A stretch of DNA of 64,000 nucleotides. It comes from Protonemura montana (taxonomy: Eukaryota > Arthropoda > Insecta > Plecoptera > Nemouridae). Shown here in pieces: positions 8,701 to 61,600 of the stretch. Each line of letters opens with the position of its first letter. Position 1 is the first letter of the stretch. A program made the position numbers and the translations under genes. Location of the stretch: assembly GCA_947568835.1 (NCBI GenBank), contig OX387612.1, positions 11,782,001 to 11,846,000 on the forward strand, written 5' to 3'. A model generated the notes under the pieces. The model was not told the DNA's origin. It ran no database searches and saw nothing but the letters and a program-made list of their open reading frames with translations.

Positions 8701-11700
8701 TGTCCTAATTTTTTCGAATAAAAAAAACTGCCAGAAACAACCATAACTTTTTCTAAATCATAAAGGCTATTTTACGCCAAAAATTGTTTGAACAAAGACT
8801 TGTTTAACGTTTAAGAATGATATTTACTCAGAACAAATTAAATCTTGAATTTCAACTAGCTTTAAGCGTTAAGTGTAAGTTATAGGTAGGGACAGAAAGA
8901 TGGCCGCCAAATGACTGCCTTACCGACAAAAATGCTGAGTACCGGAACGTCACGTTAAGTGGAGCCACTGTCGTATGAATTTTAATTTCGATATTTCTCG
9001 TAGGTTACTCGCTTTTTAATATCGTTACGTGTTTATCAATCGTTGAGGTAAACATTGATGGAGATTTTTTGAGCATGAAAAGTCTCAAAAGCGAGTAACC
9101 TACGAGAAATATCGAAATTAAAATTTATACGACAGTGGCTCCACTTAACGTGATGTTCCGGTACTCTGCATTTTTGTCGGTAAGGAAGTCATTTGGCGGC
9201 CATCTTTCACGCAGAGACTGTAACATTGACGTTGAAACTCTACCTAGAACCTACACACTCAACGGTTTAACATTAACGTTCTGTCTCTACCTAGAACCTG
9301 CACACTCAACGGTTTAACATTAACGTTCTGTCTCTACCTAGAACCTGCACACTCAACGGTTTAACATTAACGTTCTGTCTCTACCTAGAACCTGCACACT
9401 CAACGGTTTAACATTAACGTTCTGTCTCTACCTAGAACCTGCACACTCAACGGTTTAACATTAACGTTCTGTCTCTACCTAGAACCTGCACACTCAACGG
9501 TTTAACATTAACTTTCTGCCTCAACCTAGAATTTGCACACTCAACGGTTTAACATTAACGTTCTGTCTCTACCTAGAACCTGCACACTCAACGGTTTAAC
9601 ATCAACGTTCTGTCTCTACCTAGAACCTGCACACTCAACGGTTTAACATTAACGTTCTGTCTCTACCTAGAACCTGCACACTCGACGGTTTAGCATTAAC
9701 GTTCTGTCTCTACCTAGAACCTGCACACTCAACGGTTTAACATCAACGTTCTGTCTCCACCTAGAACCTGCACACTCAACGGTTTAACATCAACGTTCTG
9801 TCTCTACCTAGAACCTGCACACTCAACGGTTTAACATTAACGTTCTGTCTCTACCTAGAACCTGCACACTCAACGGTTTAACATTAACGTTCTGTCTCTA
9901 CCTAGAACCTGCACACTCAACGGTTTAACATCAACGTTCTGTTTCTACCTAGAACCTGCACACTGAACGGTTTAACATTAACGTTCTGTCTCTACCTAGA
10001 ACCTGCACACTCAACGGTTTAACATTAACGTTCTGTCTCTACCTAGAACCTGCACACTCAACGGTTTAACATCAACGTTCTGTCTCTACCTAGAACCTGC
10101 ACACTCAACGGTTTAACATTAACGTTCTGTCTCTACCTAGAACCTGCACACTCAACGGTTTAACATTAACGTTCTGTGTCTACCTAGAACCTGCACACTC
10201 AACGGTTTAACATTAACGTTCTGTATCTACCTAGAACCTGCACACTCAATGGTTTAAGCCAAATTCAGCCTGAAGTTGTAGGAACGGTCGCCAGGGGAGG
10301 AAATGAGGAAGGAGAAAGGAGGAAGGAGGAAGGAGGAAGGAGGAAGACATTGCACCTGTAGAATACGCATGGTAGTCTGGAAGTGATGGTTTTCCATGCA
10401 AGACTCTGGATAAAGTTGTATCAACTCGGCGTTGATTTGCTGCATGAAGTTGTTTGTGAATCCTCGGTGGTCGATGTCGTGGCAAAGAGCGGCAATCACA
10501 AGAGCCTTGTTCTGTAATATCACGCGGCCATTTGCAATTCAATTGTATTACCACTGATCTCAAATAATCTGGATAATGATTGCCATGGAGAATTTGAATT
10601 AACAAGGCCACTATCAATAAGTTACTTCTGACTTAAATGTAGTTATGATTCAATTGTTGTGTTTAACGACGAATCTTTTTGACAACGAGTCATGTGGCAC
10701 TTGTCTTATGGCGTTAGTGATTGAGCGGATGATGAACCCAACCTAACCTAGAAGGGTGGAGGGGAAACCCGGTGTCAACACGTAGCCTACTCCTGTCAAA
10801 GAGCACCAAGGTGACCACTGGCTTAACGTCCCTTCCGAAGGACGGTACAACGCGAACAACAGGATTACTCCACAAATCCATGCTGTCGAGAGGTTGATAA
10901 GCAAGGCGAGTGAAGTTGCTGTACTAACTTTCATCCCTCCAACCTCTCACCCGAACAGAACTGGTCATGTGCATGATGGTCACCCATCCAATACCTGACC
11001 CAGCACAGCGTTGCTTAACTTTCATCTCTCCAACCTCTCTCCCGACCAGAACTGGTCATGTGTATGATAATCACCCATCCAATACCTGACCCAGCGCAGT
11101 GTTGCTTAACTTTCATCCCTCCAACCTCTCTCCCGAACAGAACTGGTCATGTGTATGATGGTCACCCATCCAATACCTGACTCAGTGCAATGTTGCTTAA
11201 CTTTCATCCCTCCAACCTCTCTCCCGAACAGAACTGGTCATGTGTATGATGATAACCCATCCAATACCTGACTCAGTGCAATGTTGCTTAACTTTCATCC
11301 CTCCAACCTCTCTCCCGAACAGAACTGGTCATATGTATGATGATCACCCATCCAATACCTGACCCAGCACAGTGTTGCTTAACTTTCATCCCTCCAACCT
11401 CTCTCCCAAACAGAACTGGTCTTGTGTATGATGATCACCCATCCAATACCTGACCCATCGCAGTGTTGCTTAACATTCATCCCTCCAACCTCTCTCCCGA
11501 ACAGAACTGGTCATGTGTATGATGATCACCCATCCAATACCTGACTCAGTGCAATGTTGCTTAACTACGGGTCTTTAACGAGCACCAGTGTTTCCAACAC
11601 GACAAACCGATCCATCCATTGTAAATAAGTACCTCAAGAGGAGTGAAGATGTCCTGGTTGCGCTTAAGGATATTATACATGCAGTGGGCGACGTTAAAGG

Positions 11701-29420: not shown

Positions 29421-29489
29421 GGATTTACAGTAATGATTAACTCATCAATTGTTGATTGTTAATCATCATCTTCATCATCATTCACTCAT

Positions 29490-30795
29490 TCTCCGACGCA
29501 ATTAGACCAGTGAGTAGGATAGTCACCCATCCAATACCTGACCCAGCGCAGTGTTGCTTAACTTTCATCCCTCCAACCTCTCTCCCGAACAGAACTGGTC
29601 ATGTGTATGATGGTCACCCATCCAATACCTGACCCAGCGCAGTGTTGCTTAACTTTCATCCCTCCAACCTCTCTCCCGAACAGAACTGGTCATGTGTATG
29701 ATGGTCACCCATCCAATACCTGACCCAGAGCAGTGTTGCTTAACTTTCATCCCTCCAACCTATCTCCCGAACAGAACTGGTCATGTGTATAATGGTCACC
29801 CATCCAATACCTGACCCAGCGCAGTGTTGCTTAACTTTCATCCCTCCAATCTCTCTCCCGAACAGAACTGGTCATGTTTATGATAGTCACCCATCCAATA
29901 CCTGACCCAGCGCAGTGTTGCTTAACTTTTATCCCTCAAACCTCTCTCCCGAACAGAACTGGTCATGTTTGTGATAGTCACCCATCCAATACCTGACCCA
30001 GCGCAGTGTTGCTTAACTTTTATCCCTCAAACCTCTCTCCCGAACAGAACTGGTCATGTGTATGATAGTCACCCATCCAATACCTGACCCAGCGCAGTGT
30101 TGCTTAACTTTCATCCCTCCAACCTCTCTCCAGAACAGAACTGGTCATGTGTATGATAGTCACCCATCCAATACCTGACCCAGCGCAGTGTTGCTTAACT
30201 TTCATCCGTCCAACCTCTCTCCCGAACAGAACTGGTCATGTGTATGATGGTCACCCATCCAATACCTGACTCAGCGCAGTGTTGCTTAACTTTCATCCCT
30301 CCAACCTCTCTCCCGAACAGAACTGGGCATGTGTATGATGGTCACCCATCCAATACCTGACCCAGCGCAGTGGTGCTTAACTTTCATCCCTCCAACCTCT
30401 CTCCCAAACAGAACTGGTCATGTGTATGATGGTCAACCATCCAATACCTGACCCAGCGCAGTGTTGCTTAACTTTCATAGCTCCAACCTCTCTCTCGAAC
30501 AGAACTGGTCATGTGTATGATGGTCACACATCCAATACCCGACTTAGCGCAGTGTTGCTTAACTTTCATCCCTCCAACTTCTCTCCCGAACAGAACTGGT
30601 CATGTGTATGATGGTCACCCATCCAATACCTGACCCAGCGCAGTGTTGCTTAACTTTCATCCCTCCAACCTCTCTCCCGAACAGAACTGGTCATGTGTAT
30701 GATGGTCACCCATCCAATACCTGACCCAGCGCAGTGTTGCTTAACTTTCATCCCTCCAACCTCTCTCTCGAACAGAACTGGTCACGTGTATGACC
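29490..30795 (-). repeat. 91-bp 5S-SINE head array, about 14 units
   Basis: Between the PDE10-like promoter region and the SLC22-like 3' end. Units carry TTCATCCCTCCAACCTCTCT, CATGTGTATGATGGTCACCC and ATCCAATACCTGACCCAGCG. Preceded by a SINE tail scrap (29490..29514). Confidence 0.92.
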
Positions 30796-30974
30796 AGTGT
30801 CACATGTCACAACTGTTATTTACTCTCGATGAAGTGACAGTCGTAAGAGACGAAGCATTGGGAAAATTAGTTGTGTCAACTTCCCGTAAATTATTTGCAG
30901 TTATGACTTCAGATCAATCATAATAACTTTGTTAACACAAATAAATGCACACCAGTTTGTTTATAGAAAAAGAC

Positions 30975-30980
30975 TTTATT
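30975..30980 (-). terminator. Poly(A) signal of the SLC22-like gene
   Basis: AATAAA on the minus strand (context AAGAAATAAAGTC), 47 nt after the TGA stop at 31027..31029. It implies a very short 3'UTR, with cleavage expected near 30955-30965. Position and context make this convincing. Confidence 0.75.
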
Positions 30981-31026
30981 TCTTGAAAACAGTATTGATA
31001 AAAAAATAAATAATGAGAGCACATGT

Positions 31027-34000
31027 TCACGGTTTCTTTAAACTCTCGATCTCAGAGGCAGCAAGGACGTCGGTCAGGTTCACGGCGGACACTTCTTTCC
31101 GTGGCGATTTCCTGCGCAGAGAAAGTCAAATTGTCAGGACTTTCATCCCTCCAACCTCTCTCCCGAACAGAACTGGTCATGTGTATGATGGTCATCCATC
31201 CAATACCTGACTCAGCGCAGTGTTGCTTAACTTTCATCCCTCCAACCTCTCTCCCGAACAGAACTGGTCATGTGTATGATGGTCACTCATCCAATACCTG
31301 ACCCAGCGCAGTGTTACTTAACTTTCATCCCTCCAACCTCTCTCCCGAACAGAACTGGTCATGTGTATGATGATCTCCCATCCAATACCTGACCCAGCGC
31401 AGTGTTGCTTAACTTTCATCCCTCCAACCTCTCTCCCGAACAGAACTGGTCATGTGTATGATGATCTCCCATCCAATAACTGACCCAGCGCAGTGTTACT
31501 TAACTTTCATCCCTCCAACCTCTCTCCCGAACAGAACTGGTCATGTGTATGATGATCTCCCATCCAACACCTGACTCAGCGCAGTGTTGCTTAACTTTCA
31601 TCCCTCCAACCTCTCTCCCGAACAGAACTGGTCATGTGTATGATGGTCATGTGTTTGATGGTCATGTGTATGATGGTCATGTGTATGATGGTCACGTGTA
31701 TGATGGTCATGTGTATGAAGGTCATGTATATGATGGTCATGTGTATGATGGTCATGTGTATGATGGTCATGTGTATGATGGTCATGTGTATGATGGTCAT
31801 GTGTATGATGGTCATGTGTATGATGGTCATGTGTATGATGGTCATGTGGATGATGGTCATGTGTATGATGGTCATGTGTATGATGGTCATGTGTATGATG
31901 GTCATGTGTATGATGGTCATGTGTATGATGGTCATGTGTATGATGGTCATGTGGATGATGGTCATGTGTATGATGGTCATGTGTATGATGGTCATGTGTA
32001 TGATGGTCATGTGTATGATGGTCATGTGTATGATGGTCATGTGTATGATGGTCATGTGTATGATGGTCATGTGTATGATAGTCCTGTGTATGATGGTCAT
32101 GTGTATGATGGTCATGTGTATGATGGTCATGTGTATGATGGTCATGTGTATGATGGTCATGTGTATGATGGTCATGTGTATGATGGTCATGTGTATGATG
32201 GTCATGTATATGATGGTCACGTGTATGATGGTCATGTGTATGATTTTTTTTTTAAGTTTAATTGATACTTAATTCTGGATCATCTTCGAGTTTTGCAAGT
32301 AGCTCAATTTCACTTAGTGCTAGTGGTCGAAAAAGTATTTGATTTTCTTATGGACCATGTTTTCTAATCGCTATGTTTTACAATTTTCTGATATCCCAGA
32401 TGAAGTGGGAGTTCAATTAACTGCCATGGTAACAAGCAATCACATGCAGTGAAAGTCAGCTGTTTCTGAAAGTTAGGAGCTTAAATCTGAGTTCAAAATC
32501 CCAAGCGGAAAAAAATCGACACATGTAATTTTAGTTTTGTAACGTGGCGACATAGAAATGCAATCTTTGAGTAAGTGATTACCCTCGTTAAGTATTAAAC
32601 TTACTTCCCAAAGTTCTCCCCCTCTGCGATGGTGTCAGGTAGCTGCTTGTTCAGCGTCTCTGGCAAGGTCAGTGCCATCAGCCCGCCAATAAAGATCATG
32701 CCGCCAAACGCAATCTGGGGCAGCGGCACCCAATAATTGGACTGTAAAAAAAAAAAAAAGCACCACCAATAAGTCCCCAAGGCACGTTGACAAAAAAACA
32801 TGCGGATAGAATTCCTTAAGTGGGCTTTTTCACCAAAACGTAGCAGAACAACAAAAGAACTGGTTAAATATGCCTGCCTTTACGACCTCTTCTGACAGTT
32901 TCAAATAAAAACAACAAACCTGGATAGAGCTTAGGATCATGTCAGCTGATCTCAAATAACCTGGATAGAGCATAGGATCCAGCCAGCTGATCTCAAATAA
33001 CCTGGATAGAGCATAGGATCCAGCCAGCTGATCTCAAATAACCTGGATAGAACATAGGATCCAGCCAGCTGATCTCAAATAACCTGGATAGAACATAGGA
33101 TCCAGTCAGCTGATCTCAAATAACCTGGATAGAGCATAGGATCCAGCCAGCTGATCTCAAATAACCTGGATAGAACATAGGATCCAGCCAGCTGATCTCA
33201 AATAACCTGGATAGAGCATAGGATCCAGCCAGCTGATCTCAAATAACCTGGATAGAGCATAGGATCCAGCCAGCTGATCTCAAATAACCTGGATAGAGCA
33301 TAGGATCCAGCCAGCTGATTTCAAATAACCTGGATAGAACATAGGATCCAGCCAGCTGATCTCAAATAACCTGGATAGAACATAGGATCCAGCCAGCTGA
33401 TCTCAAATAACCTGGATAGAGCATAGGATCCAGCCAGCTGATCTCAAATAACCTGGATAGAGCATAGGATCCAGCCAGCTGATTTCAAATAACCTGGATA
33501 GAGCATAGGATCCAGCCAGCTGATCTCAAATAACCTGGATAGAGCATAGGATCCAGCCAGCTGATCTCAAATAACCTGGATAGAGCATAGGATCCAGCCA
33601 GCTGATCTCAAATAACCTGGATAGAGCATAGGATCCAGCCAGCTGATTTCAAATAACCTGGATAGAGCATAGGATCCAGCCAGCTGATCTCAAATAACCT
33701 GGATAGAGCATAGGATCCAGCCAGCTGATCTCAAATAACCTGGATAGAGCATAGGATCCAGCCAGCTGATCTCAAATAACCTGGATAGAGCATAGGATCC
33801 AGCCAGCTGATCTCAAATAACCTGGATAGAGCAAAGGATCCAGCCAGCTGATCTCAAATAACCTGGATAGAGCATAGGATCCAGCCAGCTGATCTCAAAC
33901 AACCTGGATAGAGCATAGGATCCAGCCAGCTGATCTCAATGAATCTGGATAGGATCAATAAAACAGCTAACGCCGTCTGGTGGCGTCGCTTTCCTTCTCA

Positions 34001-34183
34001 CCAGGAGCATGATGTAGGGTGCCGTGATGCCTCCAATGCGAGCGACGGTAGAACAAGCGCCCATTGCCACGTTCCTCACGGCAGTCGGGAACTGCTCGAC
34101 GGAGAACAGGTAGATTGTCGTGTACGATCCTGTCACGGCCAGCTTGCCCAGCATGTACAGAGTGACAGCCATCCAGTCAGAGT
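31027..34183 (-). CDS. SLC22-like exons 9-11: TM9-TM12 and C-terminus
   Basis: Exon 9 carries LYMLGKLAVTGSYTTIYLFS and the TM11 entry (VARIGGITAPY, Arg493). Exon 10 holds TM12 and LPETLNKQLPDTIAEGENFG. Its donor is GGGAA|GTAAGT, so reading into the intron would give Lys and an immediate TAA stop (551 residues). The spliced form instead joins exon 11, adding KSPRKEVSAVNLTDVLAASE and a short tail ending SLKKP-stop. The 41-bp array fills almost the whole intron between exons 9 and 10. Confidence 0.9.
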
Positions 34184-37100
34184 CTAAAAACAATAAAGAA
34201 GACGCTCAATGAAACATACAAAGTCATATCAAATTCTGCGGTTCCAGGTTCGATCCTGGTGGCTGGCCTTTTGGCTACACTGGTAGTGAGAGCGCCATGT
34301 CTGTCTTGCATTCGGGAGGACCCAGGATCGATCCTGGTGGTCGGCTATCTTGGTAGTGAGAGCACCATGTCTGCCTTGCATTCGGGAGGACCCAGGTTCG
34401 ATCCTGGTGGTCGGCTATCCTGGTAGTGAGAGCACCATGTCTGCCTTGCATTCGGGAGATCCCAGGTTCGATCCTGGTGGCCGGCTATCCTGGTAGTGAG
34501 AGCAATATGTCTGTCTTGCATTCGGGAGGTCCCAGGTTCGATCCTGGTTATTTGAGAAGAGTGAATATTACTGACCTGTAGGCACAGCCATCGTCAGCAA
34601 GAGTATGATACCGCCAGCAACCATGCATCCGCAGAGTAGATTCTTCCTGCCCCAGCGATTTAGAGTCAGCAACAGAATGGTGAACGCAGGGATTTCGACG
34701 AGGCCGCTGAGGACGAAGTTCAAGTACTCGTTGCCTCCGAGGTTGCCGGTGTTCCAAGAGAGCCCGTAGTAGGCACAGTTGTTCACGTACCTGCCGAAAG
34801 AAGGATTGATTGATTGATTGATTGGTGAGATTAAACCGTGTGTAAACTGTGTTGGCTGCTCCTATCCAACAGCACCAAGGACCAGCCACCGCTTAGCCTT
34901 GTCACTTTGACACACTGTGTTGGCTGCTTCTGTCCAACAGCACCAAGGACCGGCCACCGCTTAGCCTTGTCACTTTGACACACTGTGTTGGCTGCTCCTG
35001 TCCAACAGCACCAAGGACCGACTACCGCTTAGCCTTGTCACTTTGACACACTGTGTTGGCTGCTCCTGTCCAACAGCACCAAGGACCGGCCACCGCTTAG
35101 CCTCGTCACTTTGACACACTGTGTTGGCTGCTTCTGTCCAACCGCACCAAGGACCGGCCACCGCTTAGCCTTGTCACTTTGACACACTGTGTTGGCTGCT
35201 CCTGTCCAACAGCACCAAGGACCGACTACCGCTTAGCCTTGTCACTTTGACACACTGTGTTGGCTGCTCCTGTCCAACAGCACCAAGGACCGGCCACCGC
35301 TTAGCCTTGTCACTTTGACACACTGTGTTGGCTGCTCCTGTCCAATAACACCAAGGACCACACTTGAAACGTCACACTTACCAACTGAATAATATTGTAA
35401 GTGTTTTCTTGCGCAAGTTGGGGAACCTGAACAGGTCCAGCAGTGACCCCTTGTTTTGATTGGTCATGTCGACGGGGTTGGCCAGCCTGTTGAGGATGTC
35501 GTCGGGTATTGTCACGTGATTCTTTTTGGCAGTTTTCAGGAAGAGTTTTTTGGCCTCATCGGTTCGACCCTGCATCATCAGCCACCTGGCAGACTCAGGT
35601 ATGAACCTGCGGGAAAATAATTACACTTGTTTGAGAAAATTGTAAAAAAAATTTTTAGTTTTACCCTACTTTCCGTTTACTTGTCCTTGTTGCGTAGGTA
35701 CCGGTATTTTAGTCGCACTTTCATCGACTATGTTATCTATTTATGCTCGTGCTATTGCTATTGCTAGTGCTAGTGCTAGTGCTAGTGCTAGCAGGGACCC
35801 GAACCGAAATGATTAAAGGTTCTGGTTCCGGTTCCGGTTCCTAATTTTTTCAAATTAGGGTTCTGGTTCTGGTTCCGGTTTTACGTTTTTAAAGGTTCCG
35901 GTTTCGGTTCCGGTTCCATATTGTGAAGACGGGTTCCGGTTCCGGTTCCGGTTCCTAATTTTCTCAAATAAGGGTTCTGATTCCGGCTTTAAGTTTAAAA
36001 AGGTTCCGGTTCCACTTGATAAATAAAGCTTTATTTTTTAAAATTTTGCTGTTGTACAGGTTCAAGTTTTAGTGGTTTTTAGTGACACTTAGTTTTGTTT
36101 TTCCATCTGCCAGGGACAGGTCTTTTTCCTCACATTGGGTTTCAAAGCATACGAAGCCAGTTGCATAAAAGATAGGGGTGTAACGAAGTCGTAATAATTT
36201 TTTTGATTCAATTTCTCTGCACCAGTAGAGTTACAGAGTACTACTATGTACGGAGTAAAAAAGGCAGGCTAGTCCATCTCTATAAGACAAAGCATGCACG
36301 ACAAGGGGTTAGTTTGTTTAAGGCTTTCAAGTAAAAAATGTAAAGAAATGGATTTACGGTTACACTCTGATGGGGACAGGCAAAGGGTTATTTAACACTA
36401 GACATAAAATTAACTATAAACTGGATAAACCAGCTTTTCAAAATTATAAAAGGGGGCCCACCTATGCGGGTTGTGAGCTTTATAGGGCATTGCCGGCGGA
36501 TCTTCAAATCAAAAAGGACAAGAAATTCAAAATTGTGCTCAAGAATTTTCTACTTGAAAAATGTTTTTATACTGTAAAAGATTTTGTATTGTATAAGGTA
36601 GAGACAATGAAAAATTATAGTGAAAATGTAAATATTATAGTACCTAAAAATGTTGCTATGGATACATAAGACGTATATGTTGTTTAAAATGCCTTGTGTT
36701 TTCCCCAAACAAAATCGTGGATACAAGATGAGTCAATGGATGTTTTCGGAACAAACCAGTGAAACATTTTTTTTCGTGTGGAAAAATTAAAAACAAAAAA
36801 ATTGTTAACATAATAAGCAAATAATTTTAATCTGAATTTCTGAAATCTCAATATCACTTCGGAACCTTTATGGAACCTTTAAGGAACCGAAAAGAACCCA
36901 TGATTTAATAAGGGTTCCGGTTCCGGTTCTTGGAAATTAATAATAACGGTTCTGGTTCCGGTTTCGGTTCCAAGAAAATACGGGTTTTTTCGGGTTCCGG
37001 TTCCGGTTTCGGTTCCGGTTCGGGTCCCTGAGTGCTAGTGCTAGTGCTAGTGCTTGTGCTAGTGCTAGTGCTAGTGCTAGTGCTAGTGCTAGTGCTAGTG

Positions 37101-40100
37101 CTTGTGCTAGTGCTAGTGCTAGTGCTAGTGCTCATAGTGCTCACTACGGTCATAGTGTTCATAATAATAAAATTGCTACTCTAATCTAAAATACAGCTTA
37201 ATATTGCGTTTGCAAATCCCATTGTACTTGTATCAATCATCTGCCACCTGTTGTGACCTGATGCATTGCATGCATTGGCATGCAAGCTTGACATACAAGC
37301 TTACTGTCTATTCGGGACACATCCGTTCCCCGGCAGATGTGATCTTAGCAGAGCTTTCATCATCTCGGGAACAAGTTAGCCACGCCCTTCCTCCTGTCCA
37401 AGAACTTACCACCAATACGAGAGGAAGACAAGGCCGGGGAGTGTGAGAGCCAGCTGCAAGGTGCGCCATTCCTTGATGAAGTAGGAGAAGACGAAGGTCA
37501 AGACGTAGCCGGTGGCGAAGAAGTAGTTGCAGACGACTCCTGCAAACACCCGCTTCTCTGGACCGACCATCTCCATACCTAGAGACCAGCACAACGAGTC
37601 AGACCTTACATAACTTCTAGATGAAATCTTTATGAAATTGCAAACGCTTGCAATGCGCAGGGTATTTTATTATTAACAACACTATAACCGTATCAAATAG
37701 ATATGCCCAAATATATCGTTTATAATAAAAAAATTACTGAACTCGTATTTTTTTTTCTATACTACAATTGGTGGCAGTGGTTGGGATGGTAACTTTACAA
37801 TTGGTGGCAGTGGTTGGGTTAAATACCAGAGTATATCGATGGTTTACTTGAGCAAGTTTGCAAGATTTTGAAGGACAAGTGCGGCAGCTTGAGTTAGGAC
37901 AGACTTTGCCTTGCTGTTGCCACGTCCGATGGCCTCGACCCTCCCACCCTTTGTTTGTGATGCTCACCGATGACGTACGAGACTAGCGCCGTGCCGGGGA
38001 TGGTCGTGCCAATGACAAGACGCGCCATCATGAAGCTGATGTACTCAGGAGCCACGGCCGCTAGGAATCCTCCGACCACCTGCAGCACTAGCGCCAGGAA
38101 GAACACCGGGCGCCGTCCAAACCTGGCAACAACCAACGACAGATTTTGAAAAGGTAATAAATACTGGGCCTTGCACCCGGTTTTAGCAAAATATTAATTC
38201 CAAATTAAAGTCTTAGATGGAACAAATGCCTTGGCTACTGCCAATCACATGCAGTGAAATTCAGATGTTTCTGTGCGTCCAACTCATAGTTTAAAAATAT
38301 CAGCTTAATAGCAATTAGATAAGAAAGCAATGAATTTTTGGCCATTCTTAAGACTGACTGTGCTAGGAAAAAAGGAAAAAAAACAGCCAACACAGTGTGT
38401 CAAAGTGACAAGGCTAAGCGGTGTCCGGTCCTTGGTGCTGTTGTACAGGAGCAGCCAACACAGTGTGTCAAAGTGACAAGGCTAAGCGGTGGCCGGTCCT
38501 TGGTGCTGTTGGACAGGAGCAGTCAACACAGTGTGTCAAAGTGACAAGGCTAAGCGGTGGCCGGTCCTTGGTGCTGTTGGACAGGAGCAGCCAACACAGT
38601 GTGTCAAAGTGACAAGGCTAAGCGGTGGCCGGTCCTTGGTGCTGTTGGACAGGAGCAGCCAACACAGTGTGTCAAAGTGACAAGGCTAAGCGGTGGCCGG
38701 TCCTTGGTGCTGTTGGACAGGAGCAGCCAACACAGTGTGTCAAAGTGACAAGGCTAAGCGGTGGCCGGTCCTTGGTGCTGTTGGACAGGAGCAGCCAACA
38801 CAGTGTGTCAAAGTGACAAGGCTAAGCAGTGGCCGGTCCTTGGTGCTGTTGGACTGGAGCAGCCAACACAGTGTGTCAAAGGGACAAGGCTAAGCGGTGG
38901 CCGGTCCTTGGTGCTGTTGGACAAGAGCAGCCAACACAGAGAGTCAAAGTGACATGGCTAAGCGGTGGCTGGTCCTTGGTGCTGTTGGACTGGAGCAGCC
39001 AACACAGTGTGTCAAAGGGACAAGGCTAAGCGGTGGCCGGTCCTTGGTGCTGTTGGACAAGAGCAGCCAACACAGAGAGTCAAAGTGACATGGCTAAGCG
39101 GTGGCTGGTCCTTGGTGCTGTTCGACAGGAGCAGGCTGCGTGCCGGCACTAGTGTATTGAGAGCATCCTAGAGTGAAGCTTGGTCCCTAGGTTCTCACCT
39201 GTCTGCTAGATAGCCAAAGGTGAAGCTGCCGATAAGCTCGCCTAGCATGAACATGGAGTCACCCATCGCTCGGAGCCATTGGTCGTCGCACACGAGGTCA
39301 AACTAGAGCAGGACGGGGAGAAAAATTTATCAGCATCGCACAAAAATGTCTTCTTTGTCTTCCCTTGATAGGTACTAACAGTTATAACATTATATAATAA
39401 CCCATCTGGGTAACTTATTTGGTGTTTTGCAAAGAAAAAAGATCTGAGTTTACTTAGCAGCTGTGGATTCCAAATTTGCTGAACACATTACCACTGATCA
39501 ATTTTAGATAAAAAAAATACACGAACTGACCATGTACCTTTCATTTGAATTAGTATCATAGATAAATGCATACAGATATTCCACCCTTGGTTGAAATCGC
39601 CACGAGAAACCTCAACTCTTGAACCCCATAAGGATCCCATACAGATCCCGAAAGGATCCCATAAGGATCCCATAAGGATCCCATTAAGATGGCACATCTA
39701 ATTAAATGTATCTGTGGTAGTATCCATTATTATAAATCTTTTCATTTATGGGAAATGATTTCCCGGGATCCCCCAGGTAAATAATGGGAAGCCATAAGAA
39801 CGCCCTGATTCCAGGTAAGTTACCTCAGTGACGGTCGTGCTGTTGTACCGTGATCTCTCGTAGACCCAAGCTTCACAAGCAAGACTCTGGTTCGTCTCAT
39901 CCAACCTATAGCAGCTGGACAACGCCCCAGTGGCGGAGTCCCATGGATAGCTGGCGTTGGCCAGCGCTGGGGGTAGCACGTAGCTGACGTTGGTTGACTC
40001 GAAAGGCAGCTGACACCTGGGATACGAAACAGAACGTTGTTCGTGCCAAAAACTCACGTACCTACCCGCACCCCTTCCCATCAGGAGGGTCTTTGTTCGA

Positions 40101-43100
40101 TTCATGTCCATCTTGTCAGGTGTCAACATTTCAACCCGTCTCGACTCGACCATCTAAGCTGTGTTGCCAACTCACGTACCTACCCCCACCCCTTCCCATC
40201 AGGAGGGTCTTTGTTCGATTCATGTCCATCTTGTCAGGTGTCAACATTTCAACCCGTCTCGACTCGACCATCTAAGCTGAATTGCCAACTCACGTACCTA
40301 CCCTCACCCCTTCCCATCAGGAGGGTCTTTGTTCGATTCATGTCCATCTTGTCAGGTGTCAACATTTCAACCCGTCTCGACTCGACCATCTAAGCTGTGT
40401 TGCCAACTCACGTACCTACCCCCACCCCTTCCCATCAGGAGGGTCTTTGTTTGATTCATGTCCATCTTGTCAGGTGTCAACATTTCAAACCGTCTCGACT
40501 CACTGGTACTGGTAATACTGGTTACTAGTGGTGATAAAATCAACAAACTCTAAAATTGTTGAAAATGTGTCACTCTAGGTCGGGGCTATATAAAATCACC
40601 GGTAGTATTCTGTAGCCCCATGATAGCACCGCCAAATGACCGCTCTAGGTCGGGGTTATATAATACCACCGGTCGTATTATGTAGCACCATGGTAGCACC
40701 GCCAAATGACCGCTCTAGGTCGGGGTTATATAATACCACCGGTCGTATTATCTAGCACCATGGTAGCACCGCCAAATGACCGCTCTAGGTCGGGGTTATA
40801 TAATATCACCGGTCGTTTTATGTGGCACCATGGTAGCACCGCCAAATGACCGCTCTAGGTCGGGGATATATAATACCACCGGTCGTATTATGTGGCACCA
40901 TGGTTCTCTTGAACGGTAATGAGTTTCGTTGCTCTTCAACAAACCCACCTGTGGTTTACCCTCGCCTGGGTGAAAACTCCTGATAGCTTATGGAAGGCGC
41001 AGAGCAACACGGGCAGACAAAGCAGAAAGTAGATCTGCTTCTGGTACCGCCCAAAACCGCCCAGGTGCGGCAGCACATCGTCAAAGGTGAGCGCCTGCTG
41101 GTCTTTGATCTGCAAACCCAAAAATGTGGTCATTAGATGGGGTTTTTGGGACAGAAGTCCTCGGTCATAGTAAGCCATGTCTTGAGCTGGACTACAGCAT
41201 GGACTGCAAGCTTTGTTTGGCAAGCCATGTCTTGAGCTGGACAACAGCATGGACTGCAAGCTTTGTTTGGCAAGCCATGTCTTGAGATGGACAACAGCAT
41301 GGACTGCAAGCTTTGTTTGGCAAGCCATGTCTTGAGCTGGACAACAGCATGGACTGCAAGCTTTGTTTGGCAAGCCATGTCTTGAGCTGGACAACAGCAT
41401 GGACTGCAAGCTTTGTTTGGCAAGCCATGTCTTGAGCTGGACATCAGCATGGACTGCAAGCTTTGTCTGGCAAGCCATGTCTTGAGCTGGACAACAGCAT
41501 GGACTGCAAGCTTTGTTTGGCAAGCCATGTCTTAAGCTGGACAACAGTATGGACTGCAAGCTTTGTTTGGCAAGCCATGTCTTGAGCTGGACAACAGTAT
41601 GGACTGCAAGCTTTGTTTGGCAAGCCATGTCTTGAGCTGGACAACAGCATGGACTGCAGCCATGTCTTGAGCTGGACAACAGCATGGACTGCAAGCTTTG
41701 TTTGGCAAGCCATGTCTTGAGCTGGACAACAGCATGGACTGCAAGCCATGTCTTGAGCTGGACAACAGCATGGACTGCAAGCCATGTCTTGAGCTGGACA
41801 ACAGCATGGACTGCAAGCTTTGTTTGGCAAGCCATGTCTTGAGCTGGACAACAGCATGGAGTGCAAGCTTTGTTTGGCAAGCCATGTCTTAAGCTGGACA
41901 ACAGCATGGACTGCAAGCTTTGTTTGGCAAGCCATGTCTTGAGCTGGACAACAGCATGGAGTGCAAGCTTTGTTTGGCAAGCCATGTCTTAAGCTAGACA
42001 ACAGCATGGGCTGCAAGCTTTGTTTGGCAAGCCATGTCTTGAGCTGGACAACAGCATGGACTGCAAGCTTTGTTTGGCAAGCCATGTCTTGAGCTGGACA
42101 ACAGCATGGACTGCAAGCTTTGTTTGGCAAGCCATGTCTTGAGCTGGACAACAGCATGGACTGCAAGCTTGTTTGGCAAGCCATGTCTTGAGCTGGACAA
42201 CAGCATGGACTGCAAGCCATGTCTTGAGCTGGACAACAGCATGGACTGCAAGCTTTGTTTGGCAAGCCATGTCTTGAGCTGGACAACAGCATGGACTGCA
42301 AGCTTGTTTGGCAAGCCATGTCTTGAGCTGGACAACAGCATGGACTTCAAGCCATGTCTTGAGCTGGACAACAGCATGGACTGCAAGCTTTGTTTGGCAA
42401 GCCATGTCTTGAGCTGGACAACAACATGGACTGCAAGCTTTGTTTGGCAAGCCATGTCTTGAGCTGGACAACAGCATGGACTGCAAGCTTTGTTTGGCAA
42501 GCCATGTCTTGAGCTGGACAACAGCATGGACTGCAAGCTTTGTTTGGCAAGCCATGTCTTGAGCTGGACAACAACATGGACTGCAAGCTTTGTTTGGCAA
42601 GCCATGTCTTGAGCTGGACAACAGCATGGACTGCAAGCTTTGTTTGGCAAGCCATGTCTTGAGCTGGACAACAGCATGGACTGCAAGCCATGTCTTAAGC
42701 TGGACAACAGCATGGACTGCAAGCTTTGTTTGGCAAGCCATGTCTTGAGCTGGACAACAGCATGGACTGCAAGCTTTGTTTGGCAAGCCATGTCTTGAGC
42801 TGGACAACAACATGGACTGCAAGCTTTTTTTGGCAAGCCATGTCTTGAGCTGGACAACAGCATGGACTGCAAGCTTTGTTTGGCAAGCCATGTCTTGAGC
42901 TGGACAACAGCATGGACTGCAAGCTTTGTTTGGCAAGCCATGTCTTGAGCTGGACAACAGCATTGACTGCAAGCTTTGTTTGGCAAGCCATTGAGCTGGA
43001 CAACAGCATGGGCTGCAAGCTTTGTTTTGCAAGCCATGTCTTGAGCTGGACAACAGCATGGACTGCAAGCTTTGTTTGGCAAGCCATGTCTTGAGCTGGA

Positions 43101-46100
43101 CAACAGCATGGACTGCAAGCTTTATTTGGCAAGCCATGTCTTGAGCTGGACAACAGCATTGACTGCAAGCTTTGTTTGGCAAGCCATGTCTTGAGCTGGA
43201 CAACAGCATGGAGTGCAAGCTTTGTTTGGCAAGCCATGTCTTGAGCTGGACAACAGCATGGACTGCAAGCTTTGTTTGGCAGGCCATGTCTTGAGCTGGA
43301 CAACAGCATGGACTGCAAGCTTTGTTTGGCAAGCCATGTCTTGAGCTGGACAACAGCATGGAGTGCAAGCTTTGTTTGGCAAGCCATGTCTTGAGCTGGA
43401 CAACAGCATGGACTGCAAGCTTTGTTTGGCAGGCCATGTCTTGAGCTGGACAACAGCATGGACTGCAAGCTTTGTTTGGCAAGCCATGTCTTGAGCTGGA
43501 CAACAGCATGGACTGCAAGCTTTGTTTGGCAGGCCATGTCTTGAGCTGGACAACAGCATGGACTGCAAGCTTTGTTTGGCAAGCCATGTCTTGAGGTGGA
43601 CAACAGCATGGACTGCAAGCTTTGTTTGGCAAGCCATGTCTTGAGCTGGACAACAGCATGGACTGCAAGCTTTGTTTGGCAAGCCATGTCTTGAGCTGGA
43701 CAACAGCATGGACTGCAAGCTTTGTTTGGCAAGCCATGTCTTGAGCTGGACAACAGCATGGACTGCAAGCCATGTCTTGAGCTGGACAACAGCATGGACT
43801 GCAAGCCATGCCTTGAGCTGGACAACAGCATGGACTGCATGCTTCGAAACGTAAGTCCAGTTGATAGCGACTTCGCACTCAAATGCTCTCTTACCTTATT
43901 TTGAAAAGAGCATGCGTCCAGGGTTAGCTCACATACACTTGTTGAATCAGTGACGTCACCAGTGTGTAATTAGCACTAAACGGATATCAACAAGTTTGTG
44001 TAATTGTATATCATGGTCGTAATCACATTGTGGAGTGGGTCAACAATTTCTGAAGGATCGGTTTCCGATCTTAGACTCAGCGTTGTGTGCTTAAACTATG
44101 ACGACATGATCTACATTAATTATGCTTTTCCTTCTTTTGTTTCCCTTGGTAATAAGTTGTCAACAGAATGATTGATATCAGCATCTGCCTGCTCTGTCCA
44201 TGAATCATTCACGTTGATGACTTCAATATCACGGAATGAATCGCTGATTATTTATGCTTTGTTTTACGTGTAAGACTTTAACTTTATTTTATACAGCTCT
44301 TGCCTTGTTTGTCTTGTTGTAAACACCGGTCCTCGTGAGGTTACCGAAGTAAGTTCAGTTTCAACAGGATTCTAATACCTAATGATCTAATGATCTAATA
44401 CCTGACCCAGCGCAGTGTTGCTTAACTTTCATCCCTCCAACCTCTCTCCCGAACAGTACTGGTCATGTGTATGATGGTCACCCATCCAATACCTGACCCA
44501 GCGCAGTGTTGCTTAACTTTCATCCCTCCAACCTCTCTCCCGAACAGAACTGGTCATGTGTATAATGGTCACCCATCCAATACCTGACCCAGCGCAGTGT
44601 TGCTTAACTTTCATCCCTCCAACCTCTCTCCCGAACAGTACTGGTCATGTGTATGATGGTCACCCATCCAATACCTGACTCAGTGCAGTGTTGCTTAACT
44701 TTCATCCCTCCAACCTCTCTCCCAAACAGAACTGGTCATGTGTATGATGGTCACCCATCCAATACCTGACCCAGCGCAGTGTTGCTTAACTTTCATCCCT
44801 CCAACCTCTCTCCCAAACAGAACTGGTCATGTGTATGATGGTCACCCATCCAATACCTGACCCAGCGCAGTGTTGCTTAACTTTCATCCCTCCAACCTCT
44901 CTCCCAAACAGAACTGGTCATGTTTATGATGGTCACCCATCCAATACCTGATCCAGCGCAGTGTTGCTTAACTATCATCCCTCCAACCTCTCTCCCGAAG
45001 AGAACTGGTCATGTGTATGATGGTCACCCATCCAATACCTGACTCAGCTCAGTGTTGCTTAACTTTCATCCCTCCAACCTCTCTCCCGAACAGAACTGGT
45101 CATGTGTATGATGATCTCCCATCCAATACCTGACCCAGCGCAGTGTTGCTTAACTTTCATCCCTCCAACCTCTCTCCCAAACAGAACTGGTCATGTGTAT
45201 GATGGTCACCCATCCAATACCTGACCCAGCGCAGTGTTGCTTAACTTTCATCCCTCCAACCTCTCTCCCAAACAGAACTGGTCATGTGTATGATAGTCAC
45301 CCATCCAATACCTGACCCAGCGCAGTGTTGCTTAACTTTCATCCCTCCAACCTCTCTCCCAAACAGAACTGGTCATGTGTATGATGGTCACCCATCCAAT
45401 ACCTGACCCAGCGCAGTGTTGCTTAACTTTCATCCCTCCAACCTCTCTCCCAAACAGAACTGGTCATGTGTATGATGGTCACCCATCCAATACCTGACTC
45501 AGCGCAGTGTTGCTTAACTTTCATCCTTCCAACCTCTCTCCCAAACAGAACTGGTCATGTGTATGATGGTCACCCATCCAATACCTGACCCAGCGCAGTG
45601 TTGCTTAACTTTCATCCCTCCAACCTCTCTCCCGAACAGAACTGGTCATGTGTATGATGGTCACCCATCCAATACCTGACTTAGCGCAGTGTTGCTTAAC
45701 TTTCATCCCTCCAACCTCTCTCCCAAACAGAACTGGTCATGTGTATGATGGTCACCCATCCAATACCTGACTCAGCGCAGTGTTGCTTAACTTTCATCCT
45801 TCCAACCTCTCTCCCAAACAGAACTGGTCATGTGTATGATGGTCACCCATCCAATACCTGACCCAGCGCAGTGTTGCTTAACTTTCATCCCTCCAACCTC
45901 TCTCCCGAACAGAACTGGTCATGTGTATGATGGTCACCCATCCAATACCTGACTCAGTGCAGTGTTGCTTAACTTTCATCCCTCCAACCTCTCTCCCAAA
46001 CAGAACTGGTCATGTGTATGATGGTCACCCATCCAATACCTGACCCAGCGCAGTGTTGCTTTATCTCCCCTCTCTCTCGGTTTAACGGCTTATCATTCGG

Positions 46101-49100
46101 TCCTGATAGAAAATATAATATAATCTTCTCGTCTCAGATTTTTTCCCACGCAATTGATAAGACGCTGTTTCCACCTTGGCCTTTGTTCATCAGGAAGACA
46201 GAAATAAGATAAGGAAGGAACATGGCATTGTACCTGCACTTGGTTTTCATATCTTGACCACGCGTGTAATTATCACAGAGTAATTACACTTATTACAATT
46301 GCATTATCAATAATAAACAGATCAAAAAACGTTGAAAAGCTTGATAACGTGTTCGATTTGAATCCTGATTTATCTGAATCCATCCATGGTTACGCCCATA
46401 AGAGTAAAAATCAGAATTTTAGTAGCTCAAGTTCTGGTTTTTCAGTGGCTCGTTAAGTACTTAGCAAACCGTTAACAATCACAAATCATCTTCTCATTGG
46501 CTGTTGCTAAGCAATTAACAAACGCTCTTATAAATATATAAATATAAAACCCATTTAGAAAGAGTGAATTTTGATCTTTGATCTTGCCAGAAGTGATGAA
46601 CCTCTTTTTGATGAACATTATCGCCCTTTTCGCGATCGAAGTATTTATTTGTTTATTTATTTATTATTTTAAACGCATGTGAAACATCATAGATGCTAGC
46701 GCTCATCAAGGTCGCAAAACGCAACTGTCAAATAGGCAGAGTCAATAAAGCCCAGGAAGCGGACGTAAACATTCATATTTTTCAAATAAAACATCTAAAA
46801 CACATTTGACAGTTACATTGATTTCAAACCATCCTGTAGTCTTTGTTTCAAACCGTCATTGTGCAAGTAGTCACGAGTGATACGTCATTTTAGAAACGTC
46901 ACTTTCGCGCGAGCAGGAATTGAATTTGTAATCAATGTCCACGCACCGTTTACCTGTCATCAACTTTCAAAGGTACAATTTACGTTTAATAAAGCAATTA
47001 AGATAAGACTTTATTGTCGGCTCTTGTCAACTTCTGACTCCCAACTTGATGTCCAAGTACTCAAGTGAATTGTGCAGCTAATGCCCGATAACGCACACAT
47101 TTGAGCTGAACTTAATTTTAAGGTCAATTTAATCGATTGATTATTGTGTTTGACGACGCGCTGTTTTAACAGTGAGATTTGCGGCATAATTTAATGGCGT
47201 CGGTGAATGAGTGGATGATGATAAACTCAACCTAGCCTAGAAGGGGGGAGGGAAAAAACGGTGCCGGCATAAGGCCTACTCTTGTCGAAGACCAAGGGGA
47301 CCACCGGCTTAACGTCCCTTCCGAAGGACGGTACAACGTGAACAACAGGATTCCTTCACAAATCCATGCTGTCGAGAGGTTGATAAGCAAGGCGAGTAAA
47401 GTTGCTGTACTAACTTTCATCCCTCCAACCTCTCTCCCGAACAGAACTGGTCATGTGTATGATGGTCACCCATCCAATACTTGACTCAGCGCAGTGTTGC
47501 TTAACTTTCATTCCTCCAACCTCTCTCCCGAACAGAACTGGTCATGTGTATGATGGTCACCCATCCAATACCTGACCCAGCGCAGTATTGCTTAGCTTTC
47601 ATCCCTCCAACCTCTCTCCCGAACAGAACTGGTCATGTGTATGATGGTCACCCATCCAATACCTGACCCAGCGCAGTGTTGCTTAACTTTCATCCCTCCA
47701 ACCTCTCTCCCGAACAGAACTGGTCATGTGTATGATGGTCACCTATCCAATACCTGACCGAGCACAGTGTTGCTTAACTTTCATCCCTCCAACCTCTCTC
47801 CCGAACAGAACTGGTCATGTATTTGATGGTCACCCATCCAATACCTGACCCAGCGCAGTTTTGCTTAACTTTCATCCCTCCAACCTCTCTCCCGAACAGA
47901 ACTGGTCATGTATTTGATGGTCACCCATCCAATACCTGACTCAGCGCAGTGTTGCTTAACTTTCATCCCTCCAACCTCTCTCCCGAACAGAACTGGTCAT
48001 GTGTATGATGGTCACCCATCTAATACCTGACTCAGCGCAGTGTTACTTAACTTTCATCCCTCCAACCTCTCTCCCGAACAGAACTGGTCATGTATATGAT
48101 GGTCACCCATCCAATACCTGACCCAGCTCACGGATATGAGTTGTTACCTGGCCAAGATGAAACTGGCCGAAGAGCTTTTTTATCCCGACATGAAAATGCT
48201 GACTGTAAGTGTCGAAACCTCATGTGAATCACATGAAACTTCAAGCGCTAGATTGGTTGTCTAAATAATATCAAACAAAGTTTCTTATCAGTTGAGTATT
48301 TTTATAACAAAACCAACAAATGCATTGTTAATGTGATTCATTCAACTCAGTTATCGCTATTTGTCACAAATACTGAAAGCTACATCCTGTGGACCGGTGT
48401 TTCCCTGTGTAGGGTACGGGAAGAGTTCAGTCCGGGCACAAGATGCACTTTACTGGAGAGCTTCAAATAACTACCGGACATATTTCAGATTTATGATGGT
48501 TTTTAGACTCATGTCTACTTGATTTATCCTTAGCACTAGTTTTAAGAAAAACTATTTCAACTGGGTTTTGAATGCTAAGTAAAGGGCTACTAAATTTCCC
48601 GACGTTTCGCAACATTTACTAGTTACTTCTTCAAGGGTAAGAGCAGTTCTCATTAATGTTATGAAATAGTCCTATGACTTATAGTCTAGTTATAAAACTA
48701 GTGCTTACAAAAAAAAAACATTGAAGTTCACGTTACAAACGGGCAAGATTGCTGTCCAAGGGCACAACCTGGCCTTGAACAGCCAAAGCCTCTCATACGC
48801 TGGACCAGCCTTTTTTAATCACCTTCCTACTCATATAAGATGTGAGGAAGACGACGCAGCCTTTCAGCAAAGTCTTAAATAGTTTTTAATATCAAACCCT
48901 CTCTACTCAACAGCTGAGTATTTTCATATAAAAACTTAATTTATAATATTTTCATTTTATTGCATTGACTGTTTATATTATTGACTATGTTTATATCATC
49001 GATGTATGATCACCCAAACAATAAACAACATTAATTATGACACAGTCCTCATTAGAGGACTGCTCAAACCTCTGAAAAAGTAACTAGTATATGTTGCGAA

Positions 49101-51094: not shown

Positions 51095-51480
51095 TGCCGG
51101 CACGCAGTTTTCTCCTGTCCAACAGCACCAAGGACCGGCCACCGCTTAGCCTTGTCACTTTGACACACTGTGTTGGCTGCTCCTGTCCAACAACACCAAG
51201 GTCAGGCCACCGCTTAGCCTTGTCACTTTGACACACTGTGTTGGCTGCTCCTGTCCAACAGCACCGAGGACCGGCCACCGCTTAGCCTTGTCCCTTTGAC
51301 ACACTGTGTTGGCTGCTCCTGTCCAACAGCACCAAGGACCGGCCACCGCTTAGCCTTGTCACTTTGACACACTGTGTTGGCTGCTCCTGTCCAACAGCAC
51401 CAAGAACCAGCCACCGCTTCGCCTTGTCACTTTGACACACTGTGTTAGCTGCTCCTGTCCAACAGCACCAAGGTCTGGTG
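51095..51480 (-). repeat. 68-bp minisatellite, about 5.5 copies
   Basis: Minus-sense SINE-body unit upstream of SLC22-like exon 1, entered through GTGCCGGCACGCAGTTTTCT. An inverted piece (GGTGGCCGGTCCTTGGTGCT) closes it at 51480..51505. Confidence 0.92.
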
Positions 51481-54564: not shown

Positions 54565-55195
54565 AGAAGCCAACAAAGTGTGTCAAAGTGACAAGGCTAA
54601 GCGGTGGCCGGTCCTTGGTGCTGTTGGACAGGAGCAGTCAACACAGTGTGTCAAAGGGACAAGGCTAAGCGGTGGCCGGTCCTTGGTGCTGTTGGACAGG
54701 AGCAGCCAATACAGTGTGTCAAAGTGACAAGGCTAAGCGGTGGCCGGTCCTTGGTGCTGTTGGACAGGAGCAGCCAACACAGTGTGTCAAAGTGACAAGG
54801 CTAAGCGGTGGCTGGTCCTTGGTGCTGATGGACAGGAGCAGCCAACACAGTGTGTCAAAGTGACAAGGCTAAGCGGTGGCCGGTCCTTGGTGCTGTTGGA
54901 CAGGAGCAGCCAACACAGTGTGTCAAAGTGACAAGGCTAAGCGGTGGCCGGTCCTTGGTGCTGTTGGACAGGAGCAGCCAACACAGTGTGTCAAAGTGAC
55001 AAGGCTAAGCGGTGGCCGGTCCTTGGTGCTGTTGGACAGGAGCAGCCAACACAGTGTGTCAAAGTGACAAGGCTAAGCGGTGGCCGGTCCTTGGTGTTGT
55101 TGGACAGGAGCAGCCAACACAGTGTGTCAAAGTGACAAGGCTAAGCGGTGGCCGGTCCTTGGTGCTGTTGGACAGGAGCAGCCAACACAATGTGT
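54565..55195 (+). repeat. 68-bp minisatellite, about 9 copies
   Basis: Plus-sense, so inverted relative to 51095..51480. The two flank the 60-bp array. Confidence 0.92.
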
Positions 55196-60034: not shown

Positions 60035-60520
60035 ATTTGCGGTGTTTAACGACGCACTGTTTTGACATCTTGCCATGCGGCACTGGTCTAATGGCGTCGG
60101 TTAATGAGTGGATGATGATGAGGATGATGATGAGCCTAACCTAGCCTAGAAGGGAGAAGGTGAAACCCTGTGCCGGCACGTAGCCTACTCCTGTCGAAGA
60201 GCACTAAAGTGACCACTGGCTTAACGTCCCTTCCGAAGGACGGTACAACGCGAACAACAGGATTCCTCCACAAATCCATGCTGTCGAGAGGTTGATAAGC
60301 AAGGCGAGTGAAGTTGCTGTGCATACTTTCATCCCTTCAACCTCTTTCCCGAACAGAACTGGTCATGTGTATGATGGTCATCCATCCAATACCTGATCCA
60401 GCGTAGTGTTGCTTAACTTTCATCCCTCCAACCTCTCTCCCGAACAGAACTGGTCATGTGTATGATGGTCACCCCTCCAATACCTGACCCAGCGCGGTGT
60501 TGCTTAACTTCGGTGATCTC
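60035..60520 (-). mobile_element. 5S-headed SINE (minus) with two tandem heads
   Basis: The tail starts TGTTTAACGACGCACTGTTT; the body has CCTTCCGAAGGACGGTACAA; two 91-bp heads follow, the outer one continuing into TTGCTTAACTTCGGTGATCTC, the true 5S-like start. This shows the two-unit stage of array formation. Confidence 0.85.
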
Positions 60521-60699: not shown

Positions 60700-60955
60700 C
60701 CTTAACGTTAATTTTTCGAATGTCTCAGTGAAAAATGATTTCCAAATGACTCCATTACCAACAAATGTGTTAAATGCCACCCAGGTGGAATCACCGTTGA
60801 TTCGAGTTATATGAAATTTAATTTCGTTATTTCTCGCAGATTACTCGCATTTCAAACTGGTTAAAGCACTATTCGATTTTATTCCTGCTAACCTCAACGA
60901 TTGATAAACATGTGTCGATAATTGAAAACTAACCATTTTTGTTGAAAAGGTTTGT
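60700..60955. mobile_element. Decayed palindromic MITE, old copy
   Basis: CCAAATGACTCCATTACC, GAAATTTAATTTCGTTATTT and CCTCAACGATTGATAAACAT align in order with the MITE at 5188. Confidence 0.6.
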
Positions 60956-61404
60956 TGAAAAGCTAGCGTGCGTCATTCTGCGTTACCACGTGTCGCCGCG
61001 GTTTGTTTGTTCAGCAAAGAGTTAACACATACAAACTCAGCGATAGTATTGATGAAATTAAATCTTCATATAAACTAGGTGTTTGTGAGTTCCACCACTA
61101 AACAGTAACGGCTAATTTCAGCAACCTTGTCGCAGCCCAATAACAAAATGATTCATTCAATTACAGATTGGCGAGGCCAATTCATTTGCTATGCATCTGT
61201 GATGAAACTGCGGACTAAAATTCAGTGGAAATAAATTGCTTTTAATTATTGACATGAAGCTGACTCGCTATAGGTCACGGATTTAATTAACTGGACGCGT
61301 CACCGCTGCTTTGTAGCCGAGAAAGATGGAGTCACAACAATGTTTCTGTTAACATGAATTCAAATTGAAAATGGATAGGTGAGCGCTGAACGGTTTGGCT
61401 TATT

Positions 61405-61600
61405 AGAAACACCGGTCCTCGTGAGATCACTGAAGTTAAGCAACACTGCGCTGGGTCAGCTATTGGATGGGTGACCACCGAATGGTTTGGCGTGTTGGAA
61501 ACACCGGTCCTCGTGAGATCACTGAAGTTAAGCAACACTGCGCTGGGTCAGGTATTGGATGGGTGAGCACCGGTGTGTGCCCTGGATTCAGTATTTTCTA
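61405..61600 (+). mobile_element. Two tandem 5S-like SINE heads (plus)
   Basis: ACACCGGTCCTCGTGAGATC, ACTGAAGTTAAGCAACACTG and TATTGGATGGGTGA occur twice, 91 bp apart, without the usual SINE body. The head is longer at its 5' side than in the arrays, covering more of the 5S sequence. Confidence 0.75.

What the first reader, a model, noticed from the sequence alone, without database searches (positions are those of the whole stretch)
29490..46058. Tandem arrays of 5S rRNA-like SINE heads: dozens of type 1 Pol III promoter units
Six arrays (10940-11578, 29515-30795, 31139-31633, 44395-46058, 47412-48126, 60327-60520; roughly fifty units) repeat a 91-bp unit. Its minus strand carries the 5S A box (AGTTAAGCAAC) and C box (TATTGGATGGGTGACC). 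Each unit could bind TFIIIA and start Pol III transcription. All six arrays run in the same sense as the host genes, while the solitary SINE (50165) and the head dimer (61405) run opposite. Arrays of SINE promoter heads inside introns are unusual.
Basis: partly seen in the sequence, partly recalled or inferred. Interest (0 to 1): 0.75.

Follow-up and report, generated by a model that had tools for sequence, protein, structure and literature searches.

The report
SINE-head minisatellites near two genes
Short pieces of a mobile element whose front end descends from the 5S ribosomal RNA gene have been copied head to tail about fifty times at six places in an animal genome, most likely by ordinary DNA slippage rather than as a working bank of promoters.

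Summary
Six arrays of a 91-bp unit (57 unit matches, 5 of them partial, all minus strand) lie where stated. The unit is the second half of a 5S-like SINE head (A box to C box at 5S spacing) plus the 48 bp that follow in the SINE. Three arrays (10.9, 47.4, 60.3 kb) lie inside SINE copies whose bodies continue in phase. All six share one junction, at a 6-bp direct repeat (AAGTTA) found 91 bp apart in the single-head copy: the usual signature of minisatellite birth. The functional reading is weak: the promoter half varies at least as much as the rest, 26 of 52 full units keep both boxes, and units diverge about as much as the SINE DNA beside them. Two arrays were placed in introns (a PDE and an SLC22 gene); one lies past the SLC22 3' end, three upstream of its start. 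Two other minisatellites here resemble SINE parts, and 40% of the window is tandem repeat of period 20 or more. SINE-derived satellites are described in squamates, including a unit over a promoter box; 5S-like satellites are known in frogs. New member of a known kind.

The parts
10925..11566 (-). Array A, 7 units, inside a SINE copy in an intron of a cyclic-nucleotide phosphodiesterase gene
   Evidence: 5S head continues upstream to about 11620 and the body to about 10653; exon pieces on either side hit PDEase_I
10653..10924 (-). SINE body and tail of array A
   Evidence: blastn to 50284-50518, 47140-47410 and 60042-60320 at 81-88%
29514..30793 (-). Array B, 14 units, between the 3' end of SLC22 and the next ORF; the 8-mer GACCAGTG stands at 29505 and 30792
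   Evidence: gene ends read from sequence
29473..29512 (+). SINE tail fragment in opposite orientation, next to array B
   Evidence: 90% to 50477-50516
31139..31649 (-). Array C, 5.6 units, in the last SLC22 intron
   Evidence: splice sites read from sequence
31629..32244 (.). 15-bp array (41 copies) made of a piece of the 91-bp unit, continuing array C
   Evidence: sequence
44393..46061 (-). Array D, 18.3 units, no SINE body attached; a 5S-head fragment of opposite sense at about 44320-44355
47411..48127 (-). Array E, 7.9 units, inside a SINE that is cut at its 5' end
47140..47410 (-). SINE body and tail of array E
50165..50545 (+). Single-head SINE copy: the un-amplified arrangement, with AAGTTA at both ends of the 91-bp stretch
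60325..60510 (-). Array F, 2 units, inside a SINE copy with part of its 5' head
60035..60320 (-). SINE body and tail of array F
61372..61597 (+). Dimer of a different 92-bp unit with a longer 5S head, followed by a tRNA-like stretch
   Evidence: Rfam 5S 39 bits at 61483-61597; resembles the 70-bp unit at 34273

Best explanation
The arrays are minisatellites made from a 5S-derived SINE. In a SINE copy the 91 bp between two short direct repeats (AAGTTA in the 5S A-box region and AAGTTA just after the head) was duplicated by replication slippage or unequal exchange, and the duplicated head then grew by further such steps. Because all six arrays share this junction, one duplicated-head SINE probably seeded them, by retrotransposition or by exchange between copies; later local duplications and truncations gave the present arrays. 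The promoter boxes came along with the head and show no sign of being kept by selection. Shown: SINE embedding of three arrays, the shared junction at the direct repeat, no detectable constraint on the boxes. Inferred: slippage, a single founder, lack of function.
For: Arrays A, E and F run directly and in phase into a SINE body on the 3' side, and A and F into 5S head on the 5' side. The single-head copy has AAGTTA at both ends of exactly 91 bp; it is 1 of 17 direct-repeat pairs of 6 bp or more in that SINE, 6 of them 7 bp or more, so six independent choices of the same pair are unlikely. The 19-bp unit junction occurs exactly 35 times on the minus strand, in all six arrays (4, 9, 3, 15, 3, 1), and 51 times with up to 2 mismatches; never exactly on the plus strand. 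A similar event made the 15-bp array from a piece of the unit. Array means of unit distance from consensus are 2.2-4.4%, against 0.9-3.5% for the adjacent 115 bp of four SINE bodies, so arrays look about as old as the copies that hold them. No constraint on the promoter half. Two other minisatellites resemble SINE parts: the 68-bp one (5 loci) SINE body, the 70-bp one at 34273 a tRNA-like head.
Against: Arrays B, C and D have no SINE body on their 3' side, so their origin inside a SINE is inferred. Variants shared between arrays are at the chance level (13 shared, null means 12.1-17.4; 4 linked pairs, null mean 5.0), so exchange between arrays is not shown. Units are more alike within than between arrays (0.042 against 0.053; 0 of 2000 permutations), which also fits separate growth. 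Neighbouring units in an array are not more alike than distant ones (0.043 against 0.041), which step-by-step local duplication would predict. In the duplication scan A, F and S gave only 6-7-bp matches that do not sit at the element's edges, C, D and E none.
Confidence: 0.8

Rival explanations
1. The arrays are working concatemers of type 1 Pol III promoters that bind TFIIIA and make short RNAs or act on the host genes.
For: The boxes stand at 5S spacing in the consensus unit; no run of four T in the sense strand of any of the six arrays, so transcripts could pass several units; all arrays have one sense. The A box is no more variable than the non-5S part (1.00 against 1.06 changes per site).
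Against: Promoter half 1.90 changes per site against 1.09 in the rest (p 0.084 for 'more variable'; 0.027 without CpG); C box 2.15 per site; both boxes intact in 26 of 52 units, C box in 30 of 52. The unit leaves the 5S sequence before the end of the C box (box limits recalled). No RNA or binding data available.
Confidence: 0.07
2. A multi-headed SINE lineage: SINEs that already held several heads were copied as such by retrotransposition. (This overlaps the best explanation, being one of its two ways of spreading; the confidences do not add to 1.)
For: One shared junction in six arrays; three arrays in SINEs with body and tail at different sites.
Against: No clear target-site duplications around these copies. 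B, C and D lack the body and tail needed for retrotransposition. The three multi-head bodies do not group apart from the single-head one.
Confidence: 0.3
3. Arrays spread as DNA, for example as circles of 91-bp multiples reinserted elsewhere.
For: Arrays B, C and D without SINE body; B flanked by an 8-bp direct repeat GACCAGTG; five other minisatellite families occur at 2-5 loci in the window, in both orientations; circles of tandem repeats, 5S rDNA included, are reported in human cells (PMC3225859, abstract seen).
Against: No excess of variants shared between arrays. The right flank of B does not convincingly continue the SINE tail (best p 0.046 of five tests), so the 8-mer may be chance or microhomology.
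Confidence: 0.15

Closest known systems
SINE-derived satellites of squamate reptiles (Vassetzky et al. 2023, PMC10702118; abstract, Background, Squam3 results and Discussion read)
   Same: Tandem units cut from a SINE, with more of the SINE at one or both ends; the snake unit covers the 3' part of the head with promoter box B plus some body (67 nt), much as the 91-bp unit here covers the 5S boxes plus following sequence
   Different: Theirs are tRNA-related SINEs, up to about 1200 units, with a preference for subtelomeric regions; here a 5S-derived SINE, 2-18 units, near genes, animal not identified
Alu- and B1-derived minisatellites (review PMC6947457, passages seen; human survey PMC3389668, abstract seen)
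   Same: Short direct repeats inside a SINE flank the stretch that becomes the unit; slippage or unequal exchange
   Different: Different SINE type; the two units printed in the passages are 6 and 8 bp
PcP190 5S-like satellite of frogs (PMC11675491, abstract and passages seen)
   Same: Tandem repeats holding a 5S-like region, with RNA-seq evidence of transcription
   Different: About 190-bp units with a 120-bp 5S-like region; linked there to 5S rDNA, and no SINE is mentioned in the passages seen
Amphioxus 'mirage' minisatellites (PMC3087553, passages seen)
   Same: Minisatellite growth in and beside introns of an invertebrate
   Different: Units there span exon-intron borders; the word SINE does not occur in the main text; whether this window is amphioxus is not known

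Membership tests
SINE-derived satellite (sSat) | Tandem unit matches part of a SINE | tested here: met
   unit matches the solitary SINE at 88 of 91
SINE-derived satellite (sSat) | Longer terminal unit running into the rest of the SINE | tested here: met
   met at 3 of 6 arrays (A, E, F); not at B, C, D
SINE-derived satellite (sSat) | Many loci genome-wide, subtelomeric preference | not testable with these tools
5S-derived SINE (SINE3 type; the name is recalled) | 5S rRNA-like head | tested here: met
   Rfam 5S 39 bits at 61483-61597; solitary head beats 500 shuffles; the 91-bp unit alone and the head of array A do not
5S-derived SINE (SINE3 type; the name is recalled) | LINE-related 3' tail and target-site duplications | tested here: inconclusive
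   shared tail present; no clear duplications; LINE partner not sought
Functional type 1 Pol III promoter | Boxes conserved above background | tested here: not met
   promoter half 1.90, rest 1.09 changes per site; A box alone 1.00
Functional type 1 Pol III promoter | TFIIIA/TFIIIC/Pol III binding and RNA | not testable with these tools
   no expression or ChIP data

The most novel reading that the evidence does not exclude
A SINE lineage whose head is a concatemer of type 1 promoters: each internal head can start a transcript that still carries downstream heads and body, so promoter copy number itself is inherited and spread by retrotransposition. A hint: array B begins at unit phase 45 and the 15-bp array that continues C begins at phase 44-45, near phase 43 where a 5S-type start would fall (worked out by hand). 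Against it: both lack a SINE body, one search puts the 91-bp part of C at phase 39, D and E begin at 5 and 17, and the match was seen after the fact (about p 0.02 by hand).
Probability: 0.12. Interest if true: 0.6.

Novelty: new member of a known kind. Interest (0 to 1): 0.3.

Why it matters
It gives a clean worked case, with the un-amplified SINE, the direct repeat and the arrays in one 64-kb window, of how a dispersed element turns into tandem repeats. It extends the squamate pattern to a 5S-type SINE and suggests that one genome makes minisatellites from several SINE parts. In the listings (capped) of nine paper searches I saw no report of tandem arrays from a 5S-derived SINE head; the library lacks most subscription journals.

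Tried and rejected
Inter-array exchange from shared variants: looked convincing by eye (for example 39A+42T in arrays C and D) but is not above chance. 'Young arrays in old SINEs': first suggested by 10-12% divergence between bodies, dropped when the body was split, since the 115 bp next to the unit is about as conserved as the unit and the tail half is the divergent part. Empty-site test for array B: the left side matches a SINE tail, the right side is not significant. Exon-like plus-strand stretch at 48128 beside array E: no Pfam match at E up to 1 and no PDB match at E up to 10. Exact core of the unit in public viral and prokaryote contigs: none, as expected for an animal repeat. SINE strings in papers: three papers, each by the generic 5S string TTGGATGGGTGACC alone. 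ARAGORN found no tRNA. Of 13 other repeat units aligned to the SINE pieces, 2 beat their 60 shuffles and 11 did not.

Full report
What is there. The window (43% GC) holds intron-bearing animal genes and has 40% of its length in tandem repeats of period 20 or more. The 91-bp unit forms six arrays: A 10925-11566, B 29514-30793, C 31139-31649, D 44393-46061, E 47411-48127, F 60325-60510. A profile search with the unit gives 57 minus-strand matches (7, 15, 6, 19, 8, 2 per array) and three plus-strand ones, at the solitary SINE and the dimer. Of the 57, 5 are partial; the 52 full or nearly full units match the consensus at 84 to 91 of 91 positions.

What the unit is. The unit alone (score 32, shuffle maximum 42) and the head of array A (27, 37) do not stand above 500 shuffles in that crude test; the solitary head (45, 39) and the dimer (51, 36) do. 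Rfam's 5S model reaches its threshold at the dimer only (39 bits against 38). The last 48 bp of the unit are the stretch that follows the 5S-like part in the SINE at 50165.

How the arrays sit. Arrays A, E and F lie inside SINE copies: on the 3' side each passes in phase into a body and tail of about 220-290 bp shared by four copies. A keeps 5S head upstream and F part of it; E is cut at unit phase 17. Arrays B, C and D have no body. C passes into a 15-bp array made of a piece of the unit. B is flanked by the 8-mer GACCAGTG and, on one side, by a SINE tail of opposite sense; the other side is not clearly SINE (best p 0.046 of five tests).

The junction. In the single-head copy AAGTTA occurs at positions 23 and 114, 91 bp apart; it is one of 17 direct-repeat pairs of 6 bp or more spaced at least 20 bp (6 of them 7 bp or more, one 8 bp). 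The joined form GGGATGAAAGTTAAGCAAC occurs exactly 35 times on the minus strand, in every one of the six arrays (4, 9, 3, 15, 3, 1), 51 times with up to two mismatches, and never exactly on the plus strand. A duplication between these repeats explains the unit, and the same junction in all six arrays points to one founder or to a strongly preferred site.

Age and exchange. Array means of the units' distance from consensus are 2.2-4.4%; the 115 bp next to the unit in four SINE bodies lie 0.9-3.5% from theirs, the tail half 8-13%. So the arrays are not clearly younger than the copies that hold them. Units are more alike within arrays than between (0.042 against 0.053; 0 of 2000 permutations as extreme), though not in array A (0.067 within), and neighbours are not more alike than distant units (0.043 against 0.041). 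Variants shared between arrays are at the chance level (13 against null means of 12.1-17.4; linked pairs 4 against 5.0). I therefore do not claim exchange between arrays.

Promoter function. The promoter half (positions 1-43) shows 1.90 changes per site against 1.09 in the rest (positions 3-89 tested; p 0.084 for the promoter half being more variable, 0.027 without CpG sites). By part: A box 1.00, IE 3.14, C box 2.15, positions 44-91 1.06. Both boxes are intact in 26 of 52 units, the A box in 44 and the C box in 30. No array has a run of four T in the sense strand, so a Pol III transcript could run through. Selection on promoters would leave the opposite pattern in the IE and C box, but transcription is not excluded.

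Genes and orientation. Two exon pieces of a cyclic-nucleotide phosphodiesterase lie on either side of array A on the minus strand (PDEase_I, 3.6e-05, just under the curated cut-off, and 5.9e-18, covering adjoining parts of the profile). An SLC22-type transporter gene runs on the minus strand from about 41.1 kb to 31 kb (best PDB match OCT2, 4e-49); array C lies in its last intron, judged from splice sites that I read in the sequence (the last exon has no homology support). Array B lies past its 3' end; D, E and F lie upstream of its start. I found no gene there, but only two ORFs of that stretch were tested. The common sense of six arrays is a post hoc p of about 0.03 at best (hand arithmetic).

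Wider setting. The window holds other dispersed minisatellites: units of 70 bp at 5 loci, 68 bp at 5, 41 bp at 3, 118 bp at 3 and 47 bp at 2, each family in both orientations. The 68-bp unit aligns to the SINE body above 60 shuffles, and 3 of its 5 loci have a SINE-like GCCGGCA flank; the 70-bp unit at 34273 is tRNA-like and aligns to the stretch after the 5S dimer; 11 of 13 other units tested did not beat their shuffles. So turning SINE parts into minisatellites is not special to this promoter head, but most minisatellites here are not shown to be SINE-derived.

Known parallels. SINE-derived satellites in squamates match closely in structure, including a unit over a promoter box and terminal SINE remnants (PMC10702118). 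[quoted passage not shown] A transcribed 5S-like satellite is known in frogs (PMC11675491, passages). This case adds a 5S-type SINE. The species is not identified and its own genome could not be searched.

Noticed in passing
12146-13030, 34846-35359, 38384-39134, 51112-51473, 54568-55199: A 68-bp minisatellite at five loci, both orientations, resembling the body of a related SINE.
   Followed up: partly
34273-34548: A 70-bp array whose unit looks like a tRNA-derived SINE head, filling most of an SLC22 intron.
   Followed up: partly
15812-16780, 23641-24131, 40512-40904: A 70-bp minisatellite family; three of its five loci share non-array flanks of 53-130 bp, so it may sit in a mobile element.
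   Followed up: partly
2678-3102, 5188-5617, 8895-9237, 60810-60928: A partly palindromic dispersed element of about 340-430 bp (the last place is a fragment); the 47-bp array at 9238 starts at its edge.
   Followed up: no
48495-49163; also 21018-21440, 23314-23420: A short element with inverted ends of about 115 bp at 92% identity, with related ends at other sites.
   Followed up: no
19625-19765: U4 snRNA match, 129.3 bits.
   Followed up: no
2425-2694: Minus-strand ORF with a HIG_1_N domain, 2.4e-11.
   Followed up: no
48128-48206: Plus-strand exon-like ORF with a donor-like site that begins where array E ends; no database match.
   Followed up: partly
31000-41170: At least five introns of this SLC22 gene seem to hold a minisatellite array (one search set beside; exon limits read by eye).
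   Followed up: no
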